Made by a program: the position numbers and the translations under genes. Below are positions 6,637 through 62,597 of a stretch of 64,000 bases of DNA, one piece after another. Below the pieces are notes generated by a model, which was given only the letters and a program-made list of their open reading frames with translations, had not been told where the DNA came from and ran no database searches. Positions within the stretch are counted from its first letter, which is position 1. The number at the start of each line of letters is the position of its first letter. This DNA comes from Macrolepiota albuminosa. Taxonomy: Eukaryota > Basidiomycota > Agaricomycetes > Agaricales > Agaricaceae. Location: positions 3,226,115 to 3,290,114 of the forward strand of contig JAMWFC010000082.1 of NCBI GenBank assembly GCA_027475525.1, written 5' to 3'.

Positions 6637-8040
6637 GCGTACTTGCAATGACTCAAATTTCGTAGGCAGTAACAATTGTAAAAATAACATGCTTTTCCTT
6701 CTACTCATCTCTATCGCCCTGCAAAGCAGATGGAAGTCACCTCTTTGCTAGGGGCTGGCGACAAAACCTATTTCTGGTGCCAAAAGAGTCCATATACCCC
6801 TAACTAACCCTAACCAACCGCAGGTTGTAATAGAAAATCGTGCGCCACAGAAAACAATACTGGATGGCAAATGGCACGCCGGTGCCGTCTTCTTTGACCC
6901 CCTGAATATCGAGGTTAGTCTTAGGTCGAGGTTCAAGACCCCGGCAAATGGCACGCCGGTGCCGTCTTCTTTGACCCCCTGAATATCGAGGTTAGTCTTA
7001 GGTCGAGGTTCAAGACCCCCTCAATGATGGTATAATAGAACTACTCGCCAATCAATAATCAAATGTGACGGATCCAACAAGTCATGGATTTTGGACATTA
7101 CGTATTTTCAGTGGCTTCGTCGTCGAGAAACCTCCTGGGGCCATTCCCTGATTGGAAAAGGGGGATGAGACCGTAGTCCCATCGAACCTGTTGGAAGGCG
7201 AGCTTTCGGAGCTCACTCCTTAACACTCGCGGAGTAGAGTGTTCGGACTATAATGAAGAATGTGAGACTGGGACAGGAGACTGAAAGAGTGTTTGAGACT
7301 ACACACGGATCGTACGGCTTGTTTCCAGCCCCCTTCGACCTAATGGCGGATCTGGGTTGACGTCGGAAATGCGTTGAATGTCAGGACATTGGATATTAGA
7401 ATCGATTGTGTATACATTTGCAACGTTGTCCGGTCATCACACATTATCTAAGCCCCCGCCTTCAAATTTTAATTAACTTGGACTTGATAATCTCGGTCAA
7501 GAGATTAAATTTGTGGGCAGGCTGTCGTCTGTGTGCTTCACTAGACTCGATCAGATGTCAACGTCTTAGTTGCTATCAAATGATGTACAATCTGGATATA
7601 CGAATTTACATTTTCGTTTGTTGTAGACAAGACTTAGTGTGTTGGGCAAACGACTATATTGTTCCTAAGTACCTATTGTAAACAAGATTATGGTATATCC
7701 GTTAGTCTAGTGTGATATTGATATTGAATAAGTAATACACACTCAACACACTCAGTCTCGGTTGGGTAAACGAAGGTGTTGTGCTTCCGTTTCCGATCAG
7801 TATAGTGCCCCGACGTGTACCGCGACTCCCTCCGTCCAACATCGTTGCTCGTAGATTTGAATGAGGAGCAGCGACCTTGTTAAGGGTGGGTCACATGATA
7901 TGATGTGGCGTCACATTTCCATCCGTCGCAAGTGGTGGTGACTAGTAACACATATTCCAGCCACACATACTTATTTGAATTGATCTATTACAGGTCCGTA
8001 GAACGTCTATGATACGTGCCTTGGAAAAACAATGTAGCCT
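6637..8040. other. Intergenic, no gene recognised
   Basis: About 1.4 kb between the nuclease and the polo-box kinase, which converge on it. Apart from the 77-bp duplication at 6866-7019 I see no conserved coding frame. Two short similar stretches, gttgggcaaacga at 7641 and gttgggtaaacga near 7759, may be remnants of a repeat. Confidence 0.5.
6866..7019. repeat. Perfect 77-bp tandem duplication (probable assembly join)
   Basis: Copies 6866-6942 and 6943-7019 are identical and directly adjacent. The base before copy one and the base after copy two break the period, so the duplicated length is exactly 77. Intergenic. Confidence 0.97.
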
Positions 8041-11000
8041 TCACTGCCCCGCTTGACTATCTTCAAATAGCGAGACAAATTCTTCAAATACCTTCATGCG
8101 TTCGCCTACTTCTCTCTTTGATGTACATTCTCGGATATTGTATCTGTAATTTCAAATTCGGGTCATTAGTATGATTGTAAATATTTTGGCACTGACGTAG
8201 TAGTTTTGCCGAGTTGACTCTTGAATTCCACCCAATCTTCGTCAACGTCTACATCAAGGGCGACGCCATCGAGGAACATGATTCTGTACCTCCCACCTTG
8301 CGAAATGTTTGATGCGTATCGTATACACCACCCGATAGACGGAATGAATCGAGTCTGTATCTCTCTTCCTGGATTCCCTCCCGTCAAATTGGCATTCTCA
8401 CGCCACGATATTTTGGAATTTAAATCGACGCCTTCTGCCTCGCTAGGTTGGCGATCCTTCAAAGAAATTGTGTTGTTGGGCGTATAGTCCGGGGTTGGAA
8501 GAACGAACGTCGATATCTTTGACGGGCGGGGGGCCAGACTCAGCGACGAGATGCTGTTTGTCAGTGTGGTCGTGATGTGTGTTGAAGAAGAGCGCTGGAC
8601 TGGCTTGTGAGAATCAGCAACATCTTTTTGGTGGTTGTCCAGGCTAGCTGTGGTGGGTTCAGACCGAGAATGCATCTTGTCCGTCAATTCCTCAAACACG
8701 TCACTTATCTTCACAAAAAGAGTTAGCTGGTGTAGAGCGTCTTCCTCATCTTGTTTTAGTATCTTCCACTCTTCAGTTGGAATGTAAGGTGATTGCGGCA
8801 TGGATGGGACGGTCTTCTTCGTCCATTCCTCCCCTTGGGAATCAGAAATATGTCGAGCTATCTCAAGAAATTGATCGTGGCGAGAGAATCGAATGCGCAA
8901 GACGGGACCATCTGCTTTGATTTTGTTTGATGTCGTGGAGGAAGATATCAACAATTCAATGTCTGCTTGTGGAGAGTTGGCCATCAAGGTACACTTCGTA
9001 GTTCTCATGTAGACTACAAGCTTTCAAGTGACGAATTAGCGCATATATGCCCAAATACCATGCACCTACCGATGGTGTTCGTTGTTTGATTTGGTCGACA
9101 AGACGGGCTGCGTCGTTGTATTGCTTCCAATAGGTTGATGGCAAGGACTGAAGAGAGAATTGGTGTGTCGGCTCGACAAGACAGCTTGGTGAACTTAGGT
9201 GTGGCGCGTGATACACAGAGACCTCAAAGAACGACTGAACTTTTCATAGGAATAGCGAGAAGATCAAATACTAACCTTCAGACCACTGGGATCAATCAGC
9301 AACACTTCCTCTCCTTTAGATCCTTTCCGGCGCTGGCAGATCAAATACTAACCTTCAGACCACTGGGATCAATCAGCAACACTTCCTCTCCTTTAGATCC
9401 TTTCCGGCGCTGGCTTCACGAAAATCAACAAGTAATGAGTGAGAGGGCAGAACAGTTATTTGTCCATAAATAGTCTTATGTGTCTGACAAGTCAGAGAGC
9501 TGGTATTGAAAGGTGTAGGTCTCTCGGTACCAATAGGGAGCTTGGGAATGACTTGAGCTCAAGGAAAGAAAAAGAATTGTAAACCGTCAGTACCGCCTGA
9601 ACGTCTCTAACAATTTCAATTGGTTGTTCTTCGTGAACCTTCTTGCAGACAGAGTAGTCTGGGATATCAGCGTGTTGGTCCCCGCACACTGTCTCGGGAA
9701 CCGTGTCTACGGTTCCCTGTGACACGGCTTCTGAAGCGGCCCCCGAGTCCAACTTTGAGCCGCCTGTACAGATCCTCAGCGCTGGTGCGGTGACATTGCC
9801 GCGCAGTGGAAAGGTGGGTGTAGGCTTTTCACAAGATGATTTGTAAGTTTTAAAAGGTGAAAGAGCTGCTATACGACTAGTTGGATCAGAGACGACACGC
9901 CTTGTGATCTTGCAAGACGCGATGTCGTTGGACAAAGCGGTTCTCAAGTCTATATTGCCGATATCCGCAAGAGCGACTCTTGCCCTGTTGTGCGAAGTCT
10001 GTGGGTGGACAAAGCGGTTCTCAAGTCTATATTGCCGATATCCGCAAGAGCGACTCTTGCCCTGTTGTGCGAAGTCTGTGGGAATGATCAGATGCATGTC
10101 TCGCTGTTCTAGAAGTGATAGGAAAAGAAGACGAGTTATCGGATCGTTGGCGGCCGCTTGAGGCGGCGGATGATATTTGCCCATATGATTTCTGATACAG
10201 ATTCTCCTGGACTGAAGTTGTAGGACGAAGAGACTTTACTGGCATGTCGGATGCAAGAAATGCATGGGAAAGAATATCGGGAACATATATTCGGTTCTCA
10301 GGGATCTAAAGGGGGAACACCATTAAGCAAGCAGGAACCATTCGCCAAGATTAATGTTCTCACAAATTGTAATGTACGGGAAATAAGGATTTTCAAGTCA
10401 TTGGACAAGTTCTCAGGTAGACGATTGGTTGTCTGCATAATTTTGGCCTGGTTGTTAACCTTAGTCCCGGCCTGATAAAGTTGTTCAATCAAGTTAGGGA
10501 ACAAAAACTGCTTGAACTCACTTCGAAAGGAGGTGAACCAGTCAAGCAGTATGACATCACGCATCCTAAAGACCAAACATCGGTAGGAAAACTAAACGAA
10601 CTTCCGGAGGCAATTTCACTAGATATGCTTGCTAAATAATAATAGATGCGAAGAAAAGCTCCTTACTTACGGCGCAGTGTAGCTTGAGGCAGGGAAAATG
10701 TCCTCTGTAGTATGAGCGTTGCTCTGTAAACGCACGGAGTATTTGAAGTTGGAAAGTTTCTAGTCATTGTGAGATCAGTCCGATGGAAACGAGAATCCTA
10801 CGTCAATTGGAACAAACCACTCCATAGTCACTAGTCAAAAGGACATTTGACGGGTTGATGTCACCGTGGACAATTAACTCTTTCCTTAGATATACAAGAG
10901 CATCGGTAAGACTCTTGGTAACACCTCGAAGCTCGGATTCAATGAGAGTTGGCTGAGGGCGAGATTTAAGGAATGTCGATAGGTCTCCAATAGAGCAAAG

Positions 11001-11409: not shown

Positions 11410-12134
11410 TATGACAAGATGAGGATGATGAAGGTCTCCGGAGTGTCAAGAACAAAGAAGAAGGTAAAAACGATGGCCAGTAAAAGGTAGTATGCGTTCA
11501 AAATGTGAGATATGATGGTCGCCCAGAAAGAAAGAACACATACGTCATATCTCATACGAGCACGCGTTCGTCACACAGAGTCAAACTTTCTGACAGGCTT
11601 TAGAAACATATAGAATTGGAAGATACGCGATAAACAATAACCAGATTGAAAGAATGCGAATTCAAGGAATGGAGTTGTTCGTGACATACATGGCATAATT
11701 TCGTAAAAGAAGAACGGATAACCAAGGAGTATAAAAAAACCCAGTTGCATGGGTTGATGCAGGTTCTAATACATGTCGCTGAGCGACCAAGTACACATAC
11801 ACATAGTTCTAGCGACCGCGAAGTCAACAGGTCATATAACACAGGGAGAGAAATGAGCGAACGGGCCACACAAAGTGCGTTTTTACGACAAGGTGTCCTA
11901 AATGCGAATGACTGGGTAGGGAAAGGTGGTCGTGAATCATGTGAGGATGACGTGCGTTTTTACGACAAGGTGTCCTAAATGCGAATGACTGGGTAGGGAA
12001 AGGTGGTCGTGAATCATGTGAGGATGACGAAGTCCATGCTTGCAGGAGAGAACAATGAAAATAAGCTCATGAGTGCGAGGCATAATGCATAAGGGCTATG
12101 ATGGTTGAAGGGACTTGAGCTCTAATACAAGGCG
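11410..12134. other. Intergenic between PLK4-like and MPS1 genes
   Basis: Holds the 5' flank of the PLK4-like gene and the 3' flank of MPS1. No coding frame with family similarity. It includes the duplication at 11875-12028. Confidence 0.6.
11875..12028. repeat. Perfect 77-bp tandem duplication, intergenic
   Basis: Copies 11875-11951 and 11952-12028 are identical; one further base matches by chance before the period breaks at 12030. Confidence 0.97.
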
Positions 12135-15100
12135 CTAGGAACGGAACATTAACAATTGTGAGCGGAGATCATGCCGAAGAAGACATACTTCGGCTTCGCG
12201 TAGGAGACGCTCTGGGCTCATATCAGTGTTCTGAGCTTGCCCTAGCTTGATCCCGTACTCAAGTAACTGGCGCATATAGTAAGGGTTGATGACGGTCTCA
12301 TCAGCACCTACTTTGGCGAAAGTCTCGCCAGATGCCGATTTGACAACAGTTGAGTCAGTTTGCATTTTGAGGATACTTTCTCCAGGAGCAAGTTTGACAA
12401 CAATTTCGTCAGGAGCCAGTTCAGCTTTGAGTAGATGGATCAGAATATGCCAGACTGTAGCAGAGTCGTTACATACGATCAGTCATAGCTAACCAGTCCT
12501 GGTTCAGAAGCTCCGGGATCGTTGCTCTTTCTTTTGGATTACGAAGGAGACAGCCTTTCATTGTTTCAATGACAACACTTCGCACCCTCGTCTTAAGGTG
12601 ATCCAGTCGTTTCGGAGGCGTCGAGGCACCCGAGGAAGCACCGCTACTGGTTCTCGGAGTCGGTGCCAAAGGGACAGAGTACTCGGGAAAATCGATGACA
12701 TGGGCTGCATCAGGAATAGCCTTCATCTTTTGATAGACATTGAGATGTTGAAATGGGGGCATTCCATAGATCATTTGATAAAGAATGCAGCCTAATGACC
12801 AGATATCACTCGGTCTTCCAACTTTGAGGCGCCGCATTCCATCAGGCAACTCAATCGCTTCGGGGCTCATGAAGTTGACGGTGCCAATCTAGACGATTAA
12901 TCAAACCAGTCACACAAGGTACAGGGAAATGACACTGCGTACCTGATGATCCCGCTGGATATTAGTTGTATCATTCGCAATAGCATTTGCTATACCAAAA
13001 TCGATCAATTTCAACTGGCCCTTCACTATCACGAAGTTTGCAGGTTTCAGATCAGAGTGGACAATCTTTTCTTCGTGAATGACATGTACTGCCTGCAGCA
13101 TCTATACACCCAGATGTTCAGGAACATAGTTCTGGAATCACACAATAGTACGAACCTGTTTCCAATAGCCAGCCACACGAACCATATCTAACGGCTCGTG
13201 TACAGCTTCACTAATTAATCTCGCCAAGTCTACTTCGCCACATTCCATAACGAGCATCAAGTAACCTTTACTTCCTCCAGGTCCCGGTCTCACTTCACTA
13301 TCAATCAGTCGAATAATGCGAGAATTGCCTGCGAGACGTTTTAGGAGGGCTATCTCATTCATGTAGCCACTCATGGTCTCTGCGTCTGTCTTGTCAAGAG
13401 CAACTCTCTTGATTGCGTAGATCGTATTGGTGGAATCAAATACACGGTAGACACGTGAGGATCCGCCTTTTCCAATCATATCCAATCGGGCATATGTTTT
13501 CTTATTCACCTAAAAGAGGCATTATAGTTAAAGGGAGAAGACAAGATCAAGCCAACGTACAATAAGAGAACGGCTGGCTTGTGATGACGAAGTATGTGCA
13601 ACTGCGGGAACAGGAGGTCCAGGTGCCGCACGTAGTTGCTGCGGCTCCTGGTGTTGTTGTAATCGCCGACCCTCCCTTTCCCTTTCCCTCTCCTGTCGAT
13701 GCACATGTTCATCCTCACGCTCAGATACACTCCATCTTTTAGCAGGCCGTCCGTGTGACCCATCCTTCAGGATATTCTCAGGGGCAGTTGGACTCCGTTT
13801 GTGTGTCGACAGAGCGGTTGAGGATGCTGGAGACAGTCTGCCCGGTGCACGGGGCTGGGGCGGGGAACCACGTCCCGTTTTTATCAGAGGTGGGGACATC
13901 CTCCCTTTCAACGCTGACGGTGATAGCTTGCCAGGAGGGGTCGACCGACCGACTTTTGCACCAGGTGGAGACGTTCGACCAAGTTTGTTGCCGGTGGACG
14001 GCGAGACTTCTCCGATACGTGGTGGTTCCACCACTGTGGGTGATCCCAGATTCATGGACATAGGCATGGACCTCAAAGTATCGGAATCGCGACGTTTGTG
14101 AGCATAATGTCGATGTATTGGAGGCAGCGGTTGTTGTTGGTTCTGCTGTTGACCTTGGTCATAGTGCGAGTCGTAGTATTGATCTTGTTCGCCTTGCCGG
14201 CCTGCAACATAGATGAGAATATTGTGTCAAGGAGTCAAGATGTCACCTACGTTCAATTTCTTCCTCGCGTCGATGCTCTGCACAAACCAATCAGGAAGCC
14301 AGACCGCAGAGAAAGATTCACAAACGAACTCCTAATTTCCCTTTCTCGCTCTTCTAGTGTCACTCGCCTAGGTCCTCCCGTGAGATCATTAGCGGTTATA
14401 CCTATCATATTCCTCAATGGATTTATCTAGCCTGTAACCACGGAACGACTGACCAGATCGCGGATTCTGATATTCATCCCTGGTTTGCTGTTGCTGCTGT
14501 GTCCGTCCATATCCTGGGTCGTGCGCTGAACAAATGAGAAAATTAATCTACTTCTATGACACGGACGAGCTTACAATTCAAAGCATCACTGAGACTCGGT
14601 GACCGCCGTGACTGAGTGCTGGTAGAAATTGCCAATGCAACATCTGGTACACCAGGTTCGCGCACGCTACTCATGGAAACAATACCATAACTTCGTTGTC
14701 TTGTGGAAGGAGGTATTGATGGAGGCGAAGACTCAATGACATCTGTATCACCTACATTTCCCACTTCTGACAAGGGGACAGATGTCGGGAAAGGAGTTGT
14801 TGATGGCACATGTGGACGGACATGTTCATCATCTACCCCACTTCTGACAAGGGGACAGATGTCGGGAAAGGAGTTGTTGATGGCACATGTGGACGGACAT
14901 GTTCATCATCTACCAAAAGTCGTCAGTTGAAAAGGTTGATAAGAAAGCAAAAATCATACCTGCTTCATTTTCTAGTTCGGGAGTAGCAACAGGAATACTA
15001 TGTGACTCTGGATGCTATAATCCGGAAGCCTTACAACGTTCCCTGACATTGAAGACGGCAACATCACACGACCCGCTCTATGTGGACCAGGCATTATCTG

Positions 15101-15742: not shown

Positions 15743-16008
15743 GACGGGCAGCGATGAAAGCAGAAACACAGCAAGCAGAGCAAAAAAGAAAACAAACCAG
15801 TCTAACTTGGAATCTTGAATGAACCAACACGACACAGGAGACCCCGGTTCACCCTGTCCGTCTTCCCATTGGCTACCGGAGATCTCCGGTTGGGGGCCTC
15901 TAAGTTCTTCCTGCAGACGCGATCACGGGATTCTTTCAACGCGTTGACTGCCCGCGTGACTCGGAAACATTTAACATTTAAGCGCTCGATGATAAGATGA
16001 AATCTAAT

Positions 16009-19541: not shown

Positions 19542-21246
19542 TCTTCACTGTAGTTCTCCTTAGAACGGCACAAAACGCCGAAGTCATTTAAGACAAATTG
19601 TTCCCACCAGAATACCCTTGACCTGTCATTGGTCATGTTATCGATCCCTTCATCATTTGCCTTTTCATTGTCTCTTTACCCGTTGACTATTTCCGGAGTC
19701 ATAGTCGCATTTGCAGATCCGGAATTTACCATGATGTAGACATGTTTCGTTATCGTATATCAGTCTTTCATGTTACTCAATTTGTCGAATGAACCACAAT
19801 ACATGATACACTAGAAATGCTGTTTTTCTAACAGCTACTACAATCTATTCGCAAAATTCCGTCTCAAACTGTACATATCGGACCGCATCGTCAGTAAGCC
19901 TCTTTTGGTACAAGGTCGGGGGTATGTTTCATATTTCCGTCTGAAACCGTCATGTTCGAAGCCGTTAACCTTGCTTCTGAATTACTAGGGCAAGATCTTC
20001 TCGCGGGACATATCTGTAAGAACGAACGTTGGCTGTCAATCAGATGAGCACCGATTAAACAGCCTCTCAGTGGCCAAGCTGTAGATAGTAGCTATAAGTA
20101 AAAATTGACTTATCCTGTGAAGCAATTGCTCAAATGTGGCCTTCTATGCATCAACCTTTGCCGCTAAAAGCCTGCCACCGACTTCGGTCGAGTTGATCGA
20201 CCGGGAGTCTGAGATGGCAGATCCCGCCACATAGCATAGTCCGATATCCAATAGGTAGAGCTCATGTCATCCAAGCAACGGTTCACTCACACGAATTTAC
20301 AGCCCCCGCAGGCTCAATGATACCTTGAAAATTTCTTCTACCCTTCCCCCGTCCGCGCGATTACGCCTCTTACCGATCATGGATGATATTCAATTTTAAA
20401 GATCCGGCACTGACGATCGCTGATTTTATCCATCACCCCCCCGGGAGCTCTTGACCTAATGCGTAGATTTCTACCGTTTGTCCTTGATTTACATGTATTC
20501 AAGGGGTGGGTACCCCCCCGGGAGCTCTTGACCTAATGCGTAGATTTCTACCGTTTGTCCTTGATTTACATGTATTCAAGGGGTGGGTAAGGGGTGGGTT
20601 CATCCGCTTCATAAACATGCGGCGTTTCTGGCCCTTCGGAGCTAAATTACTTCCCATCAATTCAGCAGCCCTCGCACCCAGGGATCTGCCAGGACGTGAC
20701 CACATTATCACATACGCGTTTCAACCAGGATCTTCGTTCAAAAAGTACTGTGACGACCCATTAACCTTCAGATCTTTCAAAGATGATAGATAGCCTGAAA
20801 CTTTGATATCGATAGGCTGAAACTCCAGTGATAAGCGCTCAAACCCCGACGTCAAGTCGTCAAGTAGTACAGTTTTTCTGTCGCAATCTGAGCCCCTTGT
20901 CATGAACCATCACTCACGCAAAATAGACCTGGTAGATTCCATTCTATTACCCCTTTGGTTCGATGGTTCCTGTTCTCCCGAGCGGTTTGACCTTGCCGTG
21001 ACGCAGATCTCAATATCTGCTCCCATACACACAACAACGACCCCTGACGTGTCCTTACTACGACATGTCTAACGCGGCTCGCTTGCCCCACATAGACATG
21101 CCTTACAGTTTCAAGCTGCAGTCCTTTGTACCCTTCTCAGACGTAATGTTGGGACTGTGTACCCATCATTTCTGTATAAATTAAGAGCGGTTTGGACCAG
21201 GAGTTGCATTCGTACCTATTATCGTGCCAGGACTATCTCATAGAAC
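19542..21246. other. Intergenic, possible decayed coding sequence
   Basis: Between the two dsRNA-binding genes. Plus-strand 20600-20790 is open and reads LPINSAALAPRDLPGRDHII, but neither a start nor a family is evident. The 77-bp duplication at 20435-20588 lies in it. Nothing else recognised. Confidence 0.4.
20435..20588. repeat. Perfect 77-bp tandem duplication, intergenic
   Basis: Copies 20435-20511 and 20512-20588 are identical, with a C-tract near the start of each copy; one extra base matches by chance. Confidence 0.95.
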
Positions 21247-22337
21247 ATGTCGTGTAACGGGCTTTCCCATTTTTCTCTTGACCAGACTCAATTTTTCTCA
21301 GCAAGTGCTCAACGAGAACTTGAAACTTTTGCGAATTGGCATGGTTTGTCAGTGGGTTACAGACTCAATTTTTCTCAGCAAGTGCTCAACGAGAACTTGA
21401 AACTTTTGCGAATTGGCATGGTTTGTCAGTGGGTTATAGGCAGTATGACACTGGTTATCCGAGTCTCTGCGAAGTTTCAGTGTCAGGTAAGACTTTGTAT
21501 CTTCTCTCGATGAAGTCTTTAGAGTTACTGACAATAGAGTTTTAGTGGATGGCGTACCTTACTCTGCGACACATCCCGATCAAAATATGGCTTGGAAATG
21601 GCTTCTGGCTCTGCCCTTAGTGACCTTCGACAGCGACTCGCCCAAAGTACGTGCTTTGACGCTGGTATATTTCTCATCCACTTTTCCTTCTTACTTGATT
21701 GTTCAAGGAAATTCTAACCGTAAAAGACACTCAATCAAAAATTTTGTGCCTTGACTAAGAAGTCACTCATTAGCCTATTCCACGCATAGATATATCACAA
21801 CACCCCAGTATCGTAAGTTTTTGCTTTACCATTCCCTCGATTCACTTCAAACGATTACCAAACCCACCAGATCATGGGACTCCTCATACTTCACGTAAGT
21901 TGGTGAGACGATGATTCTTAACTTCCTGTTCTGATATCAGAATTGAACAGACCATGCGACCACTGAATCGCGTGAGCTAGTAACTCCACATCTCAAACTT
22001 CTCGTATAAATTTCTTCTGTCACCTGTCAGGAGATTATAGGATGCACCTGAACAACATGGCGGCTGCCCGCGGGCTTACACCTGTCAGCTACGAGGGCGA
22101 AACCCGCACTGGGCCTGAACACAACCCTACCTGGACTTCCACCGTATATGGTAGGGACCACGGAACGTTTTCTTTTTTCGATTATGGACTCAGTGTTTAT
22201 ATTTAATAGTGTGCGGGGTCAAGCGCGGTGAAGGCTGGGGCAGGAGCAAAGGCGCTGCTCGCGAGCGGGCAGCTCAACAAGCTCTAGACCACCTTGCCAG
22301 CCTCAGCTACGAGTATTCTGGTCGACTTCCATCATGA
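21247..22337 (+). CDS. Second double-stranded-RNA-binding protein (two dsRBM units)
   Basis: Protein with two RNA-binding-like units split over small exons. The start at 21247 (ATG TCG T, then an intron ending in ctcag) gives MSSSAQRELETFANWHGLSV when the 77-bp duplication at 21283-21436 is counted once. Unit one continues YRQYDTGYPSLCEVSVSVDG, VPYSATHPDQNMAWKWLLAL. Small exons follow in 21780-21990. Unit two is a canonical dsRBM: RMHLNNMAAARGLTPVSYEG, TGPEHNPTWTSTVY and, across an intron, VCGVKRGEGWGRSKGAARER, AAQQALDHL. The stop is at 22335-22337. Same two-unit plan as the gene at 18819, so the pair could come from an old tandem duplication, although their sequences are now far apart. The middle exons and the start are my reconstruction from splice signals and are less certain than the dsRBM itself. 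Confidence 0.65.
21283..21436. repeat. Perfect 77-bp tandem duplication inside second dsRBM gene
   Basis: Copies 21283-21359 and 21360-21436 are identical; flanks break the period. Each copy carries an intron end and the start of the first RNA-binding unit, so the exon appears twice. Confidence 0.97.
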
Positions 22338-22983
22338 TAATTACATACCTCTTACTGAATCCACCGTCTGCAATTTGTGATTTTCTTTACTTTACGAATC
22401 CAAGGACGAGTTCGGACTTGTGACAGTTTGAGGAATACTCTTTCTGGCATGATTTTTCATAGTAGCCGATCCTTTTTCGGTCCTTAGGTTTCGAGAAGCT
22501 ATACGACTAACTTGGGAAATCTATATTGTCATGCGCAGGACGTCCTTGTGACCTTCTCCCAAATATACCGAGAAGCTATACGACTAACTTGGGAAATCTA
22601 TATTGTCATGCGCAGGACGTCCTTGTGACCTTCTCCCAAATATACTGGTACAACTTGATAAATCTTAGTTTTCAATTGAGACAAGACCAGAAGAACATGT
22701 GTACCGAGATCTCTGAGCTACTGGCATGTTCCGCGTCGACTGAAAAACAGTACCGAATATGATTGGGTTATATATCGGTTTCCTCCGACGATGTACGATG
22801 AATGGCTCTCAATAATGCATCGCTAGTGAGCCGTCGGTTTCCTAGATTTCAAAGAATGGACCATGGTCAGGAGAGAGAAACAAGTTTTGCAAAGCAAATT
22901 CAGAATTTTATTTGCCATCAACAACGGATACACGTTCACGGGAGCACTAGAGCGCCGTATCACTAGGTTGAAAGACAACACAC
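22338..22983. other. Convergent intergenic region
   Basis: 3' flanks of the second dsRBM gene and the peroxiredoxin gene. It contains the duplication at 22492-22645; no gene recognised. Confidence 0.6.
22492..22645. repeat. Perfect 77-bp tandem duplication, intergenic
   Basis: Copies 22492-22568 and 22569-22645 are identical and both flanking bases break the period. Confidence 0.97.
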
Positions 22984-23753
22984 TTACTCCGCGACCTGTA
23001 ACGGAGTTGGACCAGCATCAGACTGGTCAAGTGAGGCAGTTTCCTCCGCCTCCAACTTGACCAGCCATTTTGCTACAAACTTTGAATGTGCGCCATAATT
23101 GATCGTCGTGTCTAGAGTGTCTCTGCCGACCCAGTATGTCAACTACCATTGACGCGCTACATAGGGGAAGATTACCTGACGGTGCCCATCTTGTCAATGA
23201 TGACTGTAACGCGCGCAACGGGGGCCAAACCCAACAGACCTTTGCCGATTCCGTAAGATTTGGCAGCCTGTCCGTTCATATCGCTCAATACTGGATACTT
23301 GTAGAGTCAGCTGAACCATCTACTCTGGAATAAAAGGAAATGCAGGGTAATTGATACTCACCGTCAGCTTCTCCTTCTCCACAAACTGCTTCTGCTTGTC
23401 AACGGGATCGGGGCTAAGCCCAATGATCTGAACTTTTCCAGGCTTGAAAGAATCTTTCTCTGGAAGGATATTAATGGCTAATCGTGACCTATTATCCAAG
23501 GGAATGTGGGAGCGGAGCTCACCGGCGATTGCATCTCGGAACTGGCAAGCTTCCTTAGTACAGCCATACGAGCCTATTTAAAAATCAGTTACCAAGGCAG
23601 CCTTTGCAGGCCGAACGCGATACCTGAGCTCGGGTAAAAGAACAGCACAGTCGGGATACCCGATTCTCCTGGTATCAACGAATACGTTTCTCCTGTGTAG
23701 TTCGGGAGGGAGATAGACGGAGCTGGTTTTCCAACAAGCGTTACATGAGACAT
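22984..23753 (-). CDS. Peroxiredoxin, PrxQ/BCP type
   Basis: Thiol peroxidase that reduces hydrogen peroxide and organic peroxides, normally recycled by thioredoxin. The start at 23753 gives MSHVTLVGKPAPSISLPNYT, the usual N-terminus. The active-site segment, assembled across an intron, is PSSGSYGCTKEACQFRDAIA: the peroxidatic Cys lies in YGCTKEAC and the second Cys five residues later is the typical resolving Cys of the PrxQ/BCP class. Further on are VQIIGLSPDPVDKQKQFVEK, YPVLSDMNGQAAKSYGIGKG, APVARVTVIIDKMGTV and a C-terminal helix VAKWLVKLEAEE. The stop is at 22984-22986. Length is about 175 residues, normal for the family. Diverges from the DAHP synthase gene across 1.2 kb. Confidence 0.93.
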
Positions 23754-24964
23754 GGTGGAAGTGGAAGGTCAATCTGTGTGTGGGACATTTCTGAGACTAA
23801 GCGAGAGAAGATAAGCCTATAAGTCGTAATCACAAACATATCCAGGTTGCTTTGCTCTGACGCTGTAATTGATGAAATTGACCGTCTCAAGGGCAAAAGG
23901 CGATCGTGCTCGTCATACTGCAGCGCAAGCCAATACCAAAGGACACAAACACGAACAAGGTGTTACGAATATACTCTGCTTGCGTGATACTTACACAAGA
24001 TACCCGACATTGAGCCATTGAGGAGATGACGACAATTTTACACGTTGTTTTTAATGCTGAAAGCCCTTCATAGAAGAAAACGTTCAAATTCGACCGATGC
24101 ACGTAGTTCGTGCGTAATATTACAAGCAGCAAGGAGAGCACGTGTGATTTGATGGCCGAAAAACGATTGAAAGGGAATCAAGATCGAGTAGAATTAGGTG
24201 AGATTGTAACACTACAAGAAAATAAATGTAGACATGTCATGATAGGTTCTGAGCGGCGCTCATTGCCTCTGCCGAATGCTTCACATCAGAAGATATCTTG
24301 AGCTTGATTTTAGTTGCGACGTACCGGCATTTGCTTCAGCGAAGCGCGCCCCTACCCTTTCCGAATGTTTGATGAACTTTTCCGTGCAATTCATAATACA
24401 TCCCTCCTGTTCGAATTCTGAGAATAAAAGACTGGTTGAAGATTCAAAGGTCACACCTCCTTCGATGAGAGAGCTTTGCTTGTGAAGTCGTTACAGCACG
24501 TGTTGAAACACTTTTCAACCAAGTTAGAGTACATTTTCAAAAAGTCTTGCATCTATATAATGCTCTGGTCATGTTTTACTTCGGAAGAGAGGAACACGTG
24601 TATACTTGTTTCTTTTCAATGACTTTCGTCATATGGGCCTGCTCGGCCGCGTTGAAGTTTGAAAAGTCCATAATGTGTGGTCAATGGAATGAGGTGACGA
24701 GGCCGAAAGCGAAATCTTCGGTTTCAAGTCCGAGCCGATCAAACTCACTTTTACAGCCACGTGCGAAGATTGATCGAGTCTCCAGAAATATTTCCCAAGC
24801 TTCGAGTCATCTGTCCAGTCTGTCCTCCCACATCTGTCCGACTAATACGAAAACGATAATCAACAAACACAATTCCTAGTAAGTGTCTACTTTTATACGC
24901 CTGATCATGAAGTTCATCTTCCACACTCTCGTTATCAGTGCCTGATATTAATCTCAATACTGCC
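23754..24964. other. Divergent intergenic region, no gene recognised
   Basis: Between the peroxiredoxin and DAHP synthase starts. Open frames here are short or lack family resemblance, including a plus-strand one at 24547-24879. Confidence 0.5.
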
Positions 24965-26406
<1,442 letters not shown>

Positions 26407-33089: not shown

Positions 33090-34649
33090 TCACTTCCTCG
33101 CGTTCGAAAAATCATCATATCCAATCTGACGATTAACAGTGATCTTAACGCCAACAGGGGCTGAGATGTGCTCTGCTGATTCGGCGTCGTGTTCGGCGAG
33201 GACGACGGGCTTCGCCTCGTTCTCGCTGGCCTTGTCGCTGGTCCACTCTGCCTCGGGCTTGGAGCGCATCTCGTCGAGGGTGTACGTGTGGCCTGGGTTG
33301 TGCGTGGACACGTTCGTCGGGACGCCGCCTGTGCGGGTGGAGATGACGTGTGCGGTGCGTGAGGAGCCGGCGTGGGACCCGGCGAGGGCGAAGGACCCGC
33401 CGTGTACGAGGCTCCCGCGGACGGAGAGTATGATGCGGAGGGTCATCGAGGTTGTGAGGACCGCTGCCATGCTGTTTAATTTTTTTTTAGTAATATTACT
33501 TTTGGCGGACGGAGGAAGTGGGTACCTGGTTACGATGGTCTTGACGGTATCGTTTATGCCGGTCGGCGTAATCACGAACCAAAAGATCATGTTTGTCAGG
33601 TTGACTAGGAAGATGGCCTGGGAATGATGGTTAGGCCGAATGTCAAGGATTGATGGTTGTCAACGGTGAGGACTTACACCGTAGAGGTTGAGTCCGTCAC
33701 GGAGCATCAGCTTCCAGAGGCTCAGAGGTTTGGCTTCGAGGGATGAGGACTTACACCGTAGAGGTTGAGTCCGTCACGGAGCATCAGCTTCCAGAGGCTC
33801 AGAGGTTTGGCTTCGAGGGACTTGAAGGAGCGGACAAGGCGAGGGCGAACTGAGAGGTAATTAGTATCACGAAAAGGGAACCGGGGAACGGTTGGACGTA
33901 ACGTACAGAAGCGGTGTAGAGCAACGTCGGAGCAAGCCAGTAGATACCGACCCAGTTGTGCTTAGGGCCAGCAATGCAACCTTGACCTTCTAGTAGGGGA
34001 ACCGCTATCGAAGACGTTGAGCTCAAGGATGTGGAATGAAGGTGTCGGTGAGCGCACATCTATAAAAGCCGCAACACACAGCGGTGACGACGACCTGGAC
34101 AGCAAAGAGCGTGCCCATCCCATATAGGATGGTCCTATTTTTTTCGTAGATTGCATGAATCCGCATGACATGGACAACTGGGAAATGCTCAGTAAACCAC
34201 AGCTGATACAGCAATGGAATCGCAACGGACTTGAGGTGGCGGCAAGCAAGATAGCGGTGCAAATGGGCTCGAAGAGATAGAAATGCTGGCATTGCTGGGT
34301 GATGGACGTTGTGAGGACGTTTTGGAAGATTTGATAGCGCCCAGACTTACGCTTTGCGACCACTTGGTATCGAAAAACGCGACGGCTGATATGATGTGAG
34401 GAAGTGTGCTCCATGTCGGATGCAAAGAGGCTCACCGACGATGACAAACTCGACGGGCATGAAAACTCTGAGAAAGTTGAAGATGATCTTGAAGGTGGGC
34501 CAGCCAGGAGACCTGAGGAGACGCCAGGAGCGGGGAGAGAGGACGAGGGTGTCCCATGCTGCGACGGTGAGGGTACAGACGAGGAAGTACTTGTGAGCAC
34601 TGAGATGGGGCGGGAGATTGAGAGACGGGGGAAGGTCGAGGGTCGACAT
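33090..34649 (-). CDS. DUF6533-like seven-span membrane protein
   Basis: Integral membrane protein of a family expanded in Agaricomycetes; function unknown, with a layout reminiscent of serpentine receptors. The start at 34649 gives MSTLDLPPSLNLPPHLSAHK. The first span region reads KYFLVCTLTVAAWDTLVLSP, followed by RSWRLLRSPGW and FNFLRVFMPVEFVIVG, the DUF6533 pattern. Later: HVMRIHAIYEKNRTILYGMG, TLFAVQVVVTAVCCGFY, GCIAGPKHNWVGIYWLAPTL, KPLSLWKLMLRDGLNLYG, AIFLVNLTNMIFWFVITPTG and SMAAVLTTSMTLRIILSVRG. A hydrophilic cytosolic-type tail ends GYDDFSNARK, stop at 33090-33092. Exons are joined by short introns. The duplication at 33667-33820 repeats the LWKLMLRDGL exon end with its donor site, which would give a doubled loop if read literally. 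Confidence 0.8.
33667..33820. repeat. Perfect 77-bp tandem duplication inside DUF6533-like gene
   Basis: Copies 33667-33743 and 33744-33820 are identical and flanks break the period. Each copy includes an exon end and its splice donor. Confidence 0.97.
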
Positions 34650-38044: not shown

Positions 38045-38724
38045 TTACTCCTCATCCTCCTCAACGTCCTCCTCCTCATCTGCCTCCTCCTCCTCCTTGG
38101 AGGACTCGACAACAGCAGTCGCAATCCGGTCCAAATCCCGCTGACCGTCCTGGGAAATTCTCCGTCCTCCATTTTCTGTCTGCTCGAGCACGCCGATTTT
38201 CTCAAGGGCTTGGCAGACTTTGCGCTGCACGGACGCGGACGAGTCGGCGTGGTGCGAGGGGCGGTTGCCCCGTCGGTTGCGACCACCGTGGAGTTTTGTC
38301 AGGGCACCGATACCGACGTCCTTGCGGAGGTATATGTGCCGTGCAACGGCAGCTATTGACCACCGTGGAGTTTTGTCAGGGCACCGATACCGACGTCCTT
38401 GCGGAGGTATATGTGCCGTGCAACGGCAGCTATTATACGGATACAAACACCAGGATGCACGCATTTTAGAACTTTTGCTGCCATACGCACCTGCACGGAC
38501 ATAGAACCAATCGGGATCGTAGGGTGCGAGTTCCTTGAACGAGGCGGTTTTGACGAGATCAACCCAAACAGGAACCTCGAGTTTTCCAGAGCGCTTCAAG
38601 TGGGAAGCGTAGGCGGTGATGAAGGCCTCTGCGCTAGGGAGGATACGGACAAGGTCGTCGACGACATACTTTTTTTTTGATCTGACAGAGGTTCGGCATA
38701 CCTGATATCACGTACTCCCGGCAT
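38045..38724 (-). CDS. RPS19: 40S ribosomal protein eS19
   Basis: Structural protein of the small ribosomal subunit head, needed for 18S rRNA maturation. The start at 38724 gives MPGVRDI, which splices to SAEAFITAYASHLKRSGKLE, then VPVWVDLVKTASFKELAPYD, PDWFYVRA, AVARHIYLRKDVGIGALTKL, HGGRNRRGNRPSHHADSSAS, VQRKVCQALEKIGVLEQTEN and GGRRISQDGQRDLDRIA. This is the full eS19 sequence pattern. After it comes an unusual strongly acidic tail of about 20 residues (KEEEEADEEEDVEEDEE) before the stop at 38045-38047. The duplication at 38281-38434 repeats an exon start and the end of the intron before it; counted once, the frame is normal. Confidence 0.95.
38281..38434. repeat. Perfect 77-bp tandem duplication inside eS19 gene
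   Basis: Copies 38281-38357 and 38358-38434 are identical; flanks break the period. On the minus strand each copy holds an intron's last bases and the exon coding ARHIYLRKDVGIGALTKLHG. Confidence 0.98.
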
Positions 38725-41799: not shown

Positions 41800-42015
41800 A
41801 TTCATTTTTGATCTGTTTCTTGATCTTTTTTCCTGATGAGAGATCAGTTTGGAAAGGGATTGAAGAAAATGATGGATTAAGAACATTGATTCTAGATAAG
41901 TATATCAGATTCTACTTACTGGGCCACTGAGAAAACGCGGGTCAATCACGTGAAAGGACGTAACAGCAACTTGATACTCGAACTTTACTTCATCCCTCAT
42001 CGTTATTTCATCCAC

Positions 42016-43101: not shown

Positions 43102-45189
43102 GTTTGAACTTGTGCACAAAGTGACTAACTACTGCTGAGATATCGTTGATATGCTAATCGTTCTTCCTCAGGTGACCGTTTCAGGCTTTACTCTTGCTCA
43201 CTGGGGTATTGGTTTGCAGTATCACGTTAGCTCTTGCCCTGTTGATATTCAAATTTCACCTGGAGTAGTCATGCAGTCCGGCTGGTGAGGAATGACCCGG
43301 ACTCGGACTGGCGCCGTGCTTGTGAAGACGAGTCACTTCAATTAGCGCATTTGGGGAAAGCTCTTGCGAGAGTTGTGACGTAATTTCGGTCTAATGCCTT
43401 CATGAAGCTAGAACGTGAATATATAAAATTCTCTATCATCATGTTCACAGTTCTGTGATAAAAAGAATCTGGGCTGCAGACATGTTTACTAACTTGATTG
43501 ATTCGACGAAGGGTTTGGAAGCCATGTACTTGCTGATACTGGTGGCCTCCCCTATGGTCTCGTACACTGATGCTATTTTTTCTTGTAGGTGGTTGTCTAT
43601 TCCAAGCACCCGACCGGCTGGACATACAGTGCCTCATAGAGCTCATGTCTTAGATGAGTCCGTACCCTCGTACTTTCGTCGAGTTGTTTCGTGAAAGATG
43701 CCTGATTCTGCAGTTTTCCCCTCTGAAATTCTAGGAGTCGCAGATCTAGATTTCGATGGTTTAAGCAAATCCTCGTACTGGTTTCTGCAGTTTTCCCCTC
43801 TGAAATTCTAGGAGTCGCAGATCTAGATTTCGATGGTTTAAGCAAATCCTCGTACTGGTCATACAACCCTTGTATCCCTTCTCGGCTGAACCATTGTTCA
43901 TAACTCAAATTCTCGATAAGCAACATCACGCACTTGATGTCTATGACTTTTTTCCAACGTAAAGCAATCTTTCTGAATTATGCCTGCACGAAAATGTATG
44001 GAGGCATCTTGTCTATCCCGTTTTGCTTTACAAGATATCGGGTTTGGCTCGCCTGGCATCGGAGGTACCCATGGTACGCAGACTTTTGTCAAAGTTATAG
44101 CTTTGCTAATGTCTTTATTCGCAGAATGCAAGAAGTTACATATTAAATCATGGTTACCTTGAAGTTATACTTAAGAAAACCCATTAGAACCCCGCAAACC
44201 CCACTAGGTGATAGCCAACGCAGCCTCTAGGATGCAATGTATGGAAGAACCCGCAAGATGCTCATCTTTCTCGTAAAGCTATCGTAATTTATCCCTCGCC
44301 CTTTTTACTGTTCAAGGATCCAGGCTCAATTTGCGATTTTATTAACTAGCCATAACCGCTAGGCCTCCGATCTGGACTGTCTTGCTTCTTGGCAATCGCC
44401 ATTTCCAGCAAAAGCAAGTATGTACTCTCCGGGAAGTAGGGTCATACGGTGATGTAAGAGCTTACGAAATCGGGACTCCTCGGTCCTATGTATTTCGGCA
44501 TGCTCTTTTTTGTGCATCCGTTTGAGCGTCTGGCAATTGATCAAGTAGCCCCTCATTTGCTGACATTCTTTGTTTATTCGCACATAATGTGAGTACTCTG
44601 GGCAGCAGGTCTACGTTCTTGTAATCCTTGTCAGCTAAATCAGGCCTTTGATTCGGTCCCACGCAGAGTGTCATTGCTCACGCATGGGGCATCAAGAACC
44701 CATGATTGAAGCGCGTGTCATATTTTAAGTGACAGAAAAAATTCGGGAAAGTGCTGTCATTGTTTGCATATAACGGCCGGTATCCCTAGAAAGTTTTCTG
44801 TATGGTGGTGACGGTTGGCTGGCGCACAAGAAGAGCAGTGGATGTGCTTTGAATGAGTAGTTTTGTTAAGGGTCTGATATGAATGTCCAGAAAGTTGTTA
44901 AGGCACACGAAAGGTACGGCAAAAGTAAGCGAGAAAACATCTTGAATTGAAGATGGGCAGCTGTTTCTTCTTGCACGTTGATTAGAATTGCTTCGATGAA
45001 AATGAGTTTGTATCCAGAGATATGTGGACAGAAGACGTTGAAGTAATGATAAAGCGGCTGTGCCTCGGCGTGTCAGCGATTTTACTCCCGTCTCGTCTGA
45101 TGCAACTGGTTGACGTCTAACCCGTATCTTCTCTTTAAATTTCGGGTTTGGCTCGTCTGTCGTTCTCGACGAGGGAGCAATCCCGCGAA
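43102..45189. other. Region with unassigned minus-strand open frames
   Basis: No confident gene. Minus-strand open stretches at 43929-43597 (LIENLSYEQWFSREGIQGLY), 44131-43898 and 44674-44359 (RFRKLLHHRMTLLPGEY) could be exons of one gene interrupted by the duplication at 43706-43859, but I recognise no family and cannot join them reliably. The right end is the promoter side of the PH-domain gene. Confidence 0.4.
43706..43859. repeat. Perfect 77-bp tandem duplication
   Basis: Copies 43706-43782 and 43783-43859 are identical; flanks break the period. It falls inside a minus-strand open stretch of unknown status. Confidence 0.97.
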
Positions 45190-48100
45190 ATGCACGGCTT
45201 CCGAACAACGTCCGGCTCTCTGACTCCTTTCCGCCTTGGCTCCCCCTCAGACAGTTCTCAAAGGTCGGGCTGGAATGAAGGTAGTAGAGACGACAACGAC
45301 AGCCGTACAAACTCAAGAGTGCGCCGGGCGTCGACGCAGTCTGGATACAAGGGAAAGGAAACAGCACATGATAAAGTCAATAGGCCTTCGACGGCACCAT
45401 TCCCTTTTGGTGTGCTAATTGTCCCTTAAATATTTTCTTTTCCCGCAGCGTTGCTCACGAGCGTTTTTCAGTACCAAACTCATCTTTCCCCTCCTCACGC
45501 CATCGACCATCGCATGAATCTGCCAGACCTTCAACCGCGGATGCAATGCACACAAAGAAAGCTCGAGGAAGTATTCTTGTCGCTGCCTCAGACGCTCTTG
45601 GCCTGAAATTTGGACGCAAAAAAACGGCCATAATAAGACAGCCTCCTCCAATGCCCTACATGCTTCCCGGTGTCATAGAAATTAGTGCTGCTAGGAAGGA
45701 AGACGAAGAGCGTGACAGACTGAGAGAAGCAGCAGCCCACTCTATCGGTCTTCAAGTTATACCAACACGGGAGACATTAGAGGAGAGTGCTGAAGTAGAT
45801 GAAGGTGAGGAAGTTCAAACCATGGACAGGAATTCCGACTACTACTACAGCAGATAACGAGGAACAGGCTGATGTTCTCAATACTGTTTCCATGTCTTCC
45901 AAGAGTTCCATCCGTTCGGTTGCCTCACCTTCTAAACCTTTCCGCCGCCGTCCGACGTCACTACTTGTTCCCAGTCGAGCGAACTCCATATCCATCTCCT
46001 CTATCCCACCATTCCCGTCTACGTTCACAGTCATCGACAAATACCAGCAATCCGGAACCATGCTCAGTAAGTATTACCCAACATCGTCACTTCGGATTTT
46101 TGCTCTTTCCAAGAATTGGCGCCATAAATTCATGGTTTTATCGTCACCGAATCTCTTTGTCACACGCAATTCAGGTCCGTCTGTATCTTATCTACACCTC
46201 TTCAAGTCTGCAGCAGGAGAGGAGAAAGAACTGGAGCGTTTGGAAATCAACGAAGATAGCGTTGTTTTTATATCCGAGGAGGAAGTAGGCGGCCGCAAAC
46301 ACGTTGTCAAAGTGGGAGGCGTGGATGTTGGTGCCATGAAGAAGGAGCTTAATTGTGAAGAAAACGGGAGAACCATGTGGTTCTTACATATAGCAGATCA
46401 AGGGGAGGCTCAGAAATGGATTACTGCCATAAAGACAGTGATTCTAGGCCAAAGGTGAGTACAAACTATGGGGTTCCTATCGCACTTTCTAACAAGGATA
46501 CACAGGACTGTTCGTGCTGGGTTAGGCTTGCCTATCCTTGGAGGTGTAGGAGTTGAGCCTCGCGGTGACATGGACGTCATGCTTTCTATGCGTGCTCAAG
46601 GTCTCATTGCTCCACTTGGAACAACGAAGTCCCAGACGGCACCGAATGGGTCCGCCGCAAGCGAGCGTAATTATGCATCATCGGTATCTTCCCACCACTC
46701 GCAGGCAACCGTATCCAGGTCCGGATCTACAAATGCAGTCTCTGCTATCAGAGGCTTTCTCTCTGGATCCACACGGCCTCGGTCCGGGTCTCGTGCGACA
46801 TCGATACAAATGCAGTCTCTGCTATCAGAGGCTTTCTCTCTGGATCCACACGGCCTCGGTCCGGGTCTCGTGCGACATCGATTTCCATAGATTCACAACA
46901 TGATAGAGATAGAGATCCTCAAGAGGACTCCTTCGGAAGCGTCGGTAGCCATCTCCTTGGCAGGCCAATTGTTACGGACACCAGTCTACGTCCTCACTCG
47001 GTCATGACCCATGCGAGTCTACCTATTTCAGGCTCTGGGTGGGATCGAGAACTGCCATTGAGCGTCCTCCGCACTGGATGTCGACAGTGACTCCGCCTGT
47101 GGAACCCGTCGCTATCAAGACCGACAGGGCCAACCGATCACTCTCATTAGGATCCTTGTCTCTTCAACCACCTCCGCGAAAGCGTTGGACTTCAGCCGGG
47201 CCGGCGCGACCCGGGGAGTCCGTTGACGTTGATATCGCGGCTTCAGCTAAGGCGGAGGCGGAACCATCTTCTAGTACCGCCGCGTCAAGGTTCACCTTTG
47301 GTACACCCGAGGATCGGTCCAAGACACCATCTATACAATCCGTGTCTACAGTGGCTTCGGCAGAAAACTCAACACCTGTGGACAGGATGAGTAGCAGTAC
47401 TAAGCGAAGCTCGCGGCGGTGGTCAAGACAAGGCATGTTGCCTCGGAGACATTCACCGCCAAGTGGGCCTCCACCGTCTATTCCCACGAATCAAGGGTAT
47501 GTCTCGAGAGCGGGACGTTTGTCTGTGGAAATACCAACGACTCGAAGCGAGGCTAGTTCAATTCACTCTGGAACAGCTCAAAAGAGCTTTGTTCATAGCC
47601 TATCGTCCTTCTCCAAGCGAGCCTCGGGTTCTTCAGTACTAAGTGCTTCAAGCTCCTTAAAATCATCCGTTGCCTCTCGCCCGACATCAAGTCATAGACT
47701 ATCAATGCCTCCGCAACGTCCTCCGCCCACGTCTGCTCCGCCTCCTGCACCTATCCATGATGCGAACTACCAAGAAACTACGCCAACACGCAACGTCCTC
47801 CGCCCACGTCTGCTCCGCCTCCTGCACCTATCCATGATGCGAACTACCAAGAAACTACGCCAACACACCAGCAAAGTCTCCAATCCGTGATACTAATGTA
47901 CATCGCACATTCAGACTCTCTTTGATAGCCCCTAAACCTCCGCCTACGAGTGTTTACCGCCTCGTCCTGACGAAATATCGTCCAAATCACATCGAAGAAC
48001 ATCTACCGGGAGTTTCCCCTTTAAGTTGACGTCTATGGGCGTCGTCTCTGGTTTGTCAACGCCCGTTCCCGTTGTTCCCTCTCCACCGTTTCCTCCACCT

Positions 48101-48598: not shown

Positions 48599-48828
48599 TT
48601 TTTCTAGTTTTTCTCATCGGCATGTTCGGAAACTGAAGGATCCATTATTTCGTATTTTGTTCTACCGTATGCTGCACACTTCGTTCAATGTCAATCAAAC
48701 ATTTTCTTACACAGTAATGAGCATTCGTTCAGGAAAGGACTGGGGCAATAAAAAAATGCGTGTGGTAGTATACAACAGTGAAAAAATATAAGTAATAACA
48801 GAGCAACCAGTCAGTTATAGTAGATCTT

Positions 48829-57979
<9,151 letters not shown>

Positions 57980-62254: not shown

Positions 62255-62452
62255 TCATTTGAGAGAACCCATACCCTGCAGTTTGAGTGATTCTTTGCCG
62301 ATAACAGGTTTCAACTCATCTTCCGAGCCACTGGAGGCCGTGACATATTCTTCAGATTTCTTGTAGGCATGAGTTCGATGTGCAGGCTTTGTATCAAACA
62401 ACTGTTGTACTCCTTTGCTTGCATAATCTCTATATAATGCGACGACGCCTGG
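62255..62452 (-). CDS. Orphan 3'-terminal exon of an unidentified gene
   Basis: Reading leftwards from a splice acceptor (tttcccag at about 62453), 65 codons stay open and end with a stop at 62255-62257. The peptide begins VVALYRDYASKGVQQLFD, continues TKPAHRTHAYKKSEEYVT, ASSGSEDELKPVIGKE and ends SLKLQGMGSLK. Composition (charged, SSGSEDEL acidic patch) looks like a real protein C-terminus. Upstream there is no matching exon: the sequence enters a near-perfect 77-bp duplication and then AT-rich repeat and satellite DNA. The body of the gene is therefore probably missing because of a false join, or it was truncated in the genome. I do not recognise the family. Confidence 0.5.
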   Translation of the reverse strand, partial: PGVVALYRDYASKGVQQLFDTKPAHRTHAYKKSEEYVTASSGSEDELKPVIGKESLKLQGMGSLK

Positions 62453-62597
62453 GAAATGATGTGCTTAGTCAGTTTTGACAGTTTCTGACTAAGGCTGACA
62501 AATAGTTGTCTTTTTGGTCTGACGCCTGGGAAATGATGTGCTTAGTCAGTTTTGACAGTTTATGACTAAGGCTGACAAATAGTTGTCTTTTTGGTCT
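62444..62597. repeat. 77-bp tandem duplication with one mismatch
   Basis: Copies 62444-62520 and 62521-62597 differ at a single base (tttctgac versus tttatgac). Start and period fit the others; it is the only one of fifteen that is not perfect. Confidence 0.95.

What the first reader, a model, noticed from the sequence alone, without database searches (positions are those of the whole stretch)
6866..62597. Fifteen unrelated sequences each duplicated in tandem with a period of exactly 77 bp
Adjacent direct duplications start at 6866, 9261, 9929, 11875, 14760, 20435, 21283, 22492, 25940, 33667, 38281, 43706, 46728, 47712 and 62444. I checked the break of periodicity at both ends of each: length is 77, sometimes plus one base by chance. 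Content is unrelated, copies are perfect in fourteen of fifteen, and they hit exons, introns and spacers alike, breaking housekeeping genes. Replication slippage or transposition would not give one fixed length with arbitrary content. Contigs from a de Bruijn graph with k=77 overlap by 77 bases; joining them without trimming produces exactly this. I infer assembly joins. If they proved real they would be a new kind of fixed-length duplication process.
Basis: partly seen in the sequence, partly recalled or inferred. Interest (0 to 1): 0.9.

Follow-up and report, generated by a model that had tools for sequence, protein, structure and literature searches.

The report
Assembly-software artefact of fixed 77-base doublings
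This mushroom genome assembly contains many adjacent doubled 77-letter stretches that were almost certainly written in by genome-assembly software using 77-letter words, not made by the fungus, so genes that look broken by them are probably intact in the organism.

Summary
In detail: 15 adjacent two-copy duplications of period exactly 77 at the stated places, 14 perfect. They continue beyond the window. In 302,007 bases read from the same 100.1-Mb, 129-contig assembly (window included), 94 of 95 exact two-copy tandem units of periods 20-399 have period 77. With near-perfect and shortened runs there are 100, one per 3.0 kb, on 16 of 20 stretches. Run lengths fit 77 plus chance matches; borders show no clear motif. 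The organism is Termitomyces-like. In a PH-domain gene and a PLK4-like kinase gene, relatives' proteins match the doubled stretch in two frames, so they hold it once. In one retroelement the doubling is absent from some copies and sits at different places in others. In all 8 copies with near-identical comparison sequence, one unit border falls on a one-base deletion that 0 of 8 single-unit copies have. That is how a branch node or anchor word of a 77-mer graph would look. Verdict: software artefact. The exact step (untrimmed joining of overlapping contigs, or 77-mer-anchored correction or gap filling) stays open. Raw reads, the decisive test, were not available.

The parts
6866..7019 (.). 77-bp unit doubled in tandem (perfect, run 77)
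9261..9414 (.). 77-bp unit doubled (perfect, run 77), in the PLK4-like kinase gene (- strand); the unit seems to run from exon into intron (inferred from the frames)
9929..10082 (.). 77-bp unit doubled (perfect, run 77), in coding sequence of the PLK4-like gene; residues 306-330 of the T. cryptogamus protein match twice, in different frames; the frames imply a one-base deletion at the 10082 border
11875..12029 (.). 77-bp unit doubled (perfect, run 78)
14760..14914 (.). 77-bp unit doubled (perfect, run 78)
20435..20589 (.). 77-bp unit doubled (perfect, run 78); the right flank starts with a further copy of the unit's last 11 bases
21283..21436 (.). 77-bp unit doubled (perfect, run 77)
22492..22645 (.). 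77-bp unit doubled (perfect, run 77)
25940..26093 (.). 77-bp unit doubled (perfect, run 77) across what looks like the end of an intron and the start of the next exon of a DAHP synthase gene (+ strand)
33667..33820 (.). 77-bp unit doubled (perfect, run 77)
38281..38434 (.). 77-bp unit doubled (perfect, run 77)
43706..43859 (.). 77-bp unit doubled (perfect, run 77)
46728..46882 (.). 77-bp unit doubled (perfect, run 78) in coding sequence of a PH-domain protein gene (+ strand); shifts the frame from +1 to +3
47712..47866 (.). 77-bp unit doubled (perfect, run 78) in the same PH-domain gene; shifts the frame; the frames imply a one-base deletion at its right border
62444..62598 (.). 77-bp unit doubled with one mismatch between copies

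Best explanation
The doublings are not in the fungus. They were written in by an assembly, hybrid-assembly, gap-filling or correction program that works with a 77-mer graph. Where the graph branches, or where the draft disagrees with the reads, the 77-letter word next to the difference serves as shared overlap or anchor; at these places the program wrote that word twice instead of once. Shown: the fixed period, arbitrary content, spread over the sampled contigs, absence in relatives' proteins and in sister repeat copies, and unit borders lying on single-base differences where this could be checked. Inferred: that the program's word length was 77, and that the fault was either untrimmed joining of contigs overlapping by k or double insertion of an anchor word. 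I put the two sub-mechanisms at about equal odds; the frame-breaking one-base deletions at the borders lean slightly towards the correction or gap-filling step.
For: 94 of 95 exact two-copy tandem units in 302,007 sampled bases have period 77; 100 sites including near-perfect and shortened ones lie on 12 of 15 sampled contigs. Extra matching beyond 77 is as chance predicts, with no clear border motif. 16 of 20 stretches hold sites, one per 3.0 kb, extrapolating to about 33,000 in 100 Mb; since 77 is not a multiple of 3, each exonic one shifts frame. At 46728, 13 of 13 PH-domain homologues compared have query residues matched twice, in frames +1 and +3; at 9929, 4 of 6 kinase homologues do so and the other two do not align there. 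For one retroelement segment I chose 20 further copies from the hit list: 8 have no period-77 doubling, 10 have an exact run of 77-78 starting at several different places, 2 have runs of 45 and 60. In 8 of 8 dup-bearing copies with close comparison sequence (L019 and seven fetched ones) the only alignment gap lies within 2 columns of one unit border. A recount at the three places concerned finds one base fewer in exactly these copies, each at one place only, and in 0 of 8 single-unit copies. At each place the doubled word lies on the left in some copies and on the right in others (L048 against L034 and L035; L031 against L030; L019 and L029 against L033), as expected for the two anchor words of one bubble. 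In a second repeat family the one site with a 98% comparison (L012 against L049) has a substitution at the base beside the unit (about 4% likely by chance).
Against: No raw reads, assembly record or second assembly of the species was available, so the artefact is inferred. A plain graph overlap should be identical in both copies, yet 4 of 100 sites carry 1-2 mismatches and two perfect runs are only 61 and 75 long; later editing of one copy would explain this but was not shown. A further imperfect site (L019 near 1897) and a period-76 run of 56 in L011 fell outside the counting rule. A unique stretch (window 20000-26500, four sites) gave one match in the final assembly, so no branch is visible there. 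L036, L038 and L039 show no gap at the border, but their comparison copies are distant; L050 and L051 were likewise uninformative. The left border reached 0.297 bits at one position, just over the 95% background limit of 0.282. The bacterial contaminant contig C129 (12.8 kb) has no doubling, so the cross-organism proof I hoped for failed.
Confidence: 0.97

Rival explanations
1. A real cellular process duplicates exactly 77 bp in tandem at random places, for example a staggered break with a fixed 77-base offset filled in and joined.
For: Fixed length, arbitrary content and near-perfect copies are what one recent process of this kind would leave; run-length excess without microhomology also fits a template-free fill-in.
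Against: At one per 3.0 kb with a frame shift at each exonic site, a large share of genes would be broken. In the retroelement the doubled word sits directly beside a one-base deletion in 8 of 8 informative copies and in none of 8 single-unit copies, which such a process would not produce. No fixed 77-bp duplication process is known to me (recall).
Confidence: 0.01
2. Ordinary tandem duplication by replication slippage, unequal crossing over or microhomology-mediated repair.
For: Adjacent direct duplications are a common mutation class (general knowledge).
Against: These give a spread of lengths; here 94 of 95 exact two-copy units have one length, and there is no excess matching at the borders.
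Confidence: 0.005
3. Target-site duplications left after excision of a mobile element.
For: Such footprints are direct duplications of fixed length and arbitrary content; repeat families with hundreds of candidate copies exist in this assembly.
Against: A 77-bp target-site duplication would be far longer than any I know (recall). The copies abut directly, with no bases between them, and the one-base deletions at the borders are not explained.
Confidence: 0.005
4. Both haplotypes of a dikaryon concatenated at their ends (false haplotype duplication).
For: False duplications from heterozygosity and read errors are documented (PMC9516828, passages seen).
Against: Haplotype overlaps should vary in length and differ by SNPs; here the length is fixed and 96 of 100 runs contain no mismatch.
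Confidence: 0.01

Closest known systems
k-length overlaps at contig ends of de Bruijn assemblies (SPAdes and relatives)
   Same: Neighbouring graph contigs share a word whose length is set by k. [quoted passage not shown] That the overlap equals k, and that 77 is SPAdes' usual largest default k for 150-base reads, is recalled.
   Different: Here the doubled words lie inside long contigs, about every 3 kb, and, where checkable, beside single-base deletions that look like long-read errors; the pipeline and its k are not known to me.
False duplications in genome assemblies (heterotype and homotype; PMC9516828)
   Same: Spurious extra copies in an assembly that mislead gene annotation, some caused by sequencing errors (passages seen).
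   Different: In the passages shown they are recognised by read depth, heterozygous k-mers and gaps between copies; none of those passages describes copies of one fixed k-mer length.
Target-site duplications and tandem duplications by repair
   Same: Adjacent direct repeats of arbitrary sequence.
   Different: One length, no element between the copies, no microhomology, borders on one-base discrepancies where checkable.

Membership tests
77-mer graph artefact of assembly software | one fixed unit length across the assembly, independent of content | tested here: met
   94 of 95 exact two-copy units of period 20-399 in 302,007 sampled bases have period 77
77-mer graph artefact of assembly software | extra matching beyond k only as chance gives | tested here: met
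   44/31/13 observed vs 49.4/24.8/13.8 expected, p 0.33
77-mer graph artefact of assembly software | a unit border coincides with a sequence difference (branch or anchor edge) | tested here: met
   8 of 8 informative copies in one repeat family, at three places; 1 of 1 in a second; by reading frame at gene sites 9929 and 47712; 46728 has a 6-base in-frame difference from relatives there. Not informative: L032, L036-L039, L050, L051, the other window sites
77-mer graph artefact of assembly software | spacing of neighbouring sites never below k+1 | tested here: inconclusive
   minimum 160 among 77 spacings; about 3 below 78 expected if exponential, so only weak support
77-mer graph artefact of assembly software | absent from other genomes or other copies of the same sequence | tested here: met
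   13 of 13 PH-domain homologues at 46728 and 4 of 6 kinase homologues at 9929 match in two frames; 8 of 20 chosen repeat copies have no doubling and the others carry it at varied places
77-mer graph artefact of assembly software | no reads span both copies; read depth halved | not testable with these tools
   no raw reads
77-mer graph artefact of assembly software | also present in foreign DNA assembled together | tested here: inconclusive
   none in the 12.8-kb Pseudomonas-like contig C129; too short to decide
Tandem duplication by slippage or repair | variable unit lengths, microhomology at borders | tested here: not met
   single length, no excess matching
Target-site duplication | copies flank a mobile element or its remnant | tested here: not met
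   copies abut directly

The most novel reading that the evidence does not exclude
A real, very active process in a Termitomyces-like fungus makes tandem duplications of exactly 77 bp next to fresh one-base deletions, about once per 3 kb.
Probability: 0.01. Interest if true: 0.95.

Novelty: not a real feature. Interest (0 to 1): 0.1.

Why it matters
As biology it most likely does not exist. As a warning it matters: at about one site per 3 kb, many gene models from this assembly would be frame-shifted, pseudogene and gene-loss counts would be inflated, and the assembly would be lengthened by roughly 2.5 Mb (about 33,000 sites times 77, extrapolated from the 302-kb sample). A scan for a lone tandem-period spike at an odd k value is a cheap quality check for public assemblies.

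Tried and rejected
Looked for a second haplotype carrying the sites: window 20000-26500 gave one match in the assembly; a 10-kb query had candidates that could not be scored. Looked for a mitochondrial contig through COX1 to test a second compartment: no match. An rRNA search was tried four times and never answered. The contaminant contig gave no doublings. Homopolymer enrichment at the borders of 45 unambiguous sites: slight at best (fraction of runs of 3 or more 0.13-0.22 against 0.16 background); position-wise information: one left-border position just above the 95% limit, the mean equal to background. Pfam scans covered all 15 sites, but both strands at only 7; at 6866, 11875, 14760, 43706 and 62444 only the minus strand, at 38281, 46728 and 47712 only the plus strand. 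They led to genes at 9261, 9929, 25940, 46728 and 47712; for the other ten sites I assigned no gene. Literature on the artefact: searches listed 15 of 78, 8 of 21, 12 of 42 and 10 of 55 papers; no listed title or abstract start describes tandem doublings of one fixed k-mer length inside contigs, but the lists were capped and I saw only passages of two papers on the point. Searches for the assembly's own paper (19 of 19 listed; none; 15 of 3,699; 12 of 1,269) did not identify it. Of PMC10021994 I saw passages: T. cryptogamus v2.0 is 70 Mb in 64 contigs, so it is not this assembly. My note said 17 of 21 stretches; the correct figure is 16 of 20. A first reading of 'about four' deletion sites in the repeat was corrected to three places. 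The 20 repeat copies were chosen (11 full-length hits other than the query, 9 split hits), so 12 of 20 with a run is not a rate.
Full report
Observation. All 15 doublings exist at the stated coordinates. An all-period scan of the window shows period 77 and nothing else apart from a 61-bp satellite at the window's end (Tandem Repeats Finder). Fourteen pairs are perfect; 62444 has one mismatch. Nine runs are 77 long and five are 78.

Beyond the window. The window is bases 3,226,115-3,290,114 of contig C65 in a 100.1-Mb assembly of 129 contigs. I read 302,007 bases from 15 contigs, window included. Among exact two-copy tandem units of any period from 20 to 399, 94 of 95 have period 77. Allowing one or two mismatches and shortened runs of 60 or more, there are 100 sites on 12 of the 15 contigs. 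They lie on 16 of 20 stretches, one per 3.0 kb on average, or one per 2.8 kb without the window; extrapolated, about 33,000 in the genome. Density ranges from none to 12 per 10-kb stretch. The counting rule left out one more imperfect site (L019 near 1897) and a period-76 run of 56 bases in L011. After removal of repeated units and sites near stretch ends, 92 sites remain, 88 of them perfect; their run lengths fit 77 plus chance matches (p 0.33). Maximal border information was 0.297 bits on the left, 8 bases inside the unit, and 0.166 on the right, against a 95% background limit of 0.282; the mean over positions equals background, so I see no clear motif. Homopolymers are at most slightly enriched. 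The shortest of 77 spacings between neighbouring sites is 160.

Organism and genes. Protein searches place the genome beside Termitomyces (Lyophyllaceae): best hits are DAHP synthase 88% over 61% of the query, a PH-domain protein 83% over 79%, and a PLK4-like kinase 70% over 88%. At 46728 in the PH-domain gene, one HSP in frame +1 runs through the first copy and the next, in frame +3, covers the second copy. In 13 of 13 homologues compared, the same query residues are matched twice (for example residues 489-517 of P0124). The second site in this gene, 47712, also throws the reading out of frame (seen with P0123 only). In the PLK4-like gene, residues 306-330 of the T. cryptogamus protein match twice in different frames at 9929; 4 of 6 homologues show this and the other two do not align there. 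At 25940 the unit covers what looks like an intron end and the exon start of DAHP synthase; the closest homologue, P0001, has that motif once. Here splicing to the second copy could still give an intact protein, so this site does not by itself argue for an artefact.

Sister copies within the assembly. A segment of a retroelement with a doubling (L019 7290-7750) had 698 candidate relatives, of which 40 were scored. I chose 20 further copies: 11 full-length hits and 9 split hits. Eight have no doubling; ten have an exact run of 77 or 78, starting at several different places of the same element; two have runs of 60 and 45. For L019 and seven of the fetched copies, both halves match single-unit copies at 99% or better, and the only alignment gap in each is one base within two columns of one unit border. 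A direct count at the three places concerned gives the same: each of these eight copies is one base short at exactly one place, the one at its unit border, and none of the eight single-unit copies is short anywhere. Three copies share the first place (L034, L035, L048), two the second (L030, L031) and three the third (L019, L029, L033), so the events are not independent. At each place the doubled word lies to the left in some copies and to the right in others, which is what the two anchor words of one bubble would look like. L036, L038 and L039 had only distant comparison copies and showed no border gap; L032 and L037 had partial runs. In a second repeat family the one site with a 98% comparison (L012 against L049) has a substitution at the base beside the unit, about 4% likely by chance; L050 and L051 had no close comparison. 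At gene sites 9929 and 47712 the reading frames also imply a one-base deletion at the unit's right border; at 46728 there is a 6-base in-frame difference from relatives there, which may be a species difference. The remaining window sites could not be checked in this way.

Interpretation. A unit that has one fixed length, arbitrary content and a border on a discrepancy is the k-mer next to a branch of a graph with word length 77, or the anchor word used to bridge a discrepancy. Writing that word twice gives this pattern. Overlaps at contig ends created by SPAdes are documented, and Unicycler removes them (PMC5481147, passages). The one-base deletions look like uncorrected long-read errors, and the PH-domain gene has two more frame changes away from the doublings. 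Contigs of several megabases also suggest long reads. This makes a 77-mer correction or gap-filling step at least as likely as joining of untrimmed contigs. I cannot separate the two with the data at hand.

Against. Four of 100 sites carry mismatches between copies and two perfect runs are short. The contaminant contig C129, whose best-matched protein is up to 98% identical to Pseudomonas, has no doubling in 12.8 kb. No reads, methods section or second assembly could be checked. The biological alternative would need a duplication process of fixed length, unknown to me, acting tens of thousands of times, and in the checkable repeat copies each time beside a one-base deletion.

Verdict: artefact, confidence 0.97.

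Noticed in passing
window 62941-64000, on to window coordinate 64150 (L002): Satellite array of a perfect 61-bp unit, 19.8 copies (exact period-61 run of 1149 bases).
   Followed up: partly
window 47040-47060 and about 47950; DAHP synthase near 26270: Further frame changes relative to Termitomyces proteins away from the doublings, looking like single-base deletions of an under-polished long-read assembly.
   Followed up: partly
G000 contig C129 (L020, L028): Bacterial contamination: one protein of this 12.8-kb contig (a dapE-like succinyl-diaminopimelate desuccinylase by recall) is up to 98% identical to Pseudomonas records.
   Followed up: yes
G000 contig C30 (L011, L025): A block with doublings recurs 13,143 bases further on: six doublings at exactly that offset and a seventh 58 bases off; two gaps of exactly 100 N occur. 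A retroelement-rich, probably misassembled region.
   Followed up: partly
window 62609-62901: Imperfect tandem repeat of period 161, 1.8 copies, next to the satellite.
   Followed up: no
window 20435-20600: Beside the doubling, the last 11 bases of the unit are repeated once more in the right flank.
   Followed up: no
window 12490-13494, - strand: A full-length protein kinase domain (PF00069, E 4e-45) in one frame, uninterrupted by a doubling, between the sites 11875 and 14760.
   Followed up: no
G000, COX1 search: No COX1 match in the assembly; the mitochondrial genome may have been left out, though an intron-split gene could be missed.
   Followed up: no
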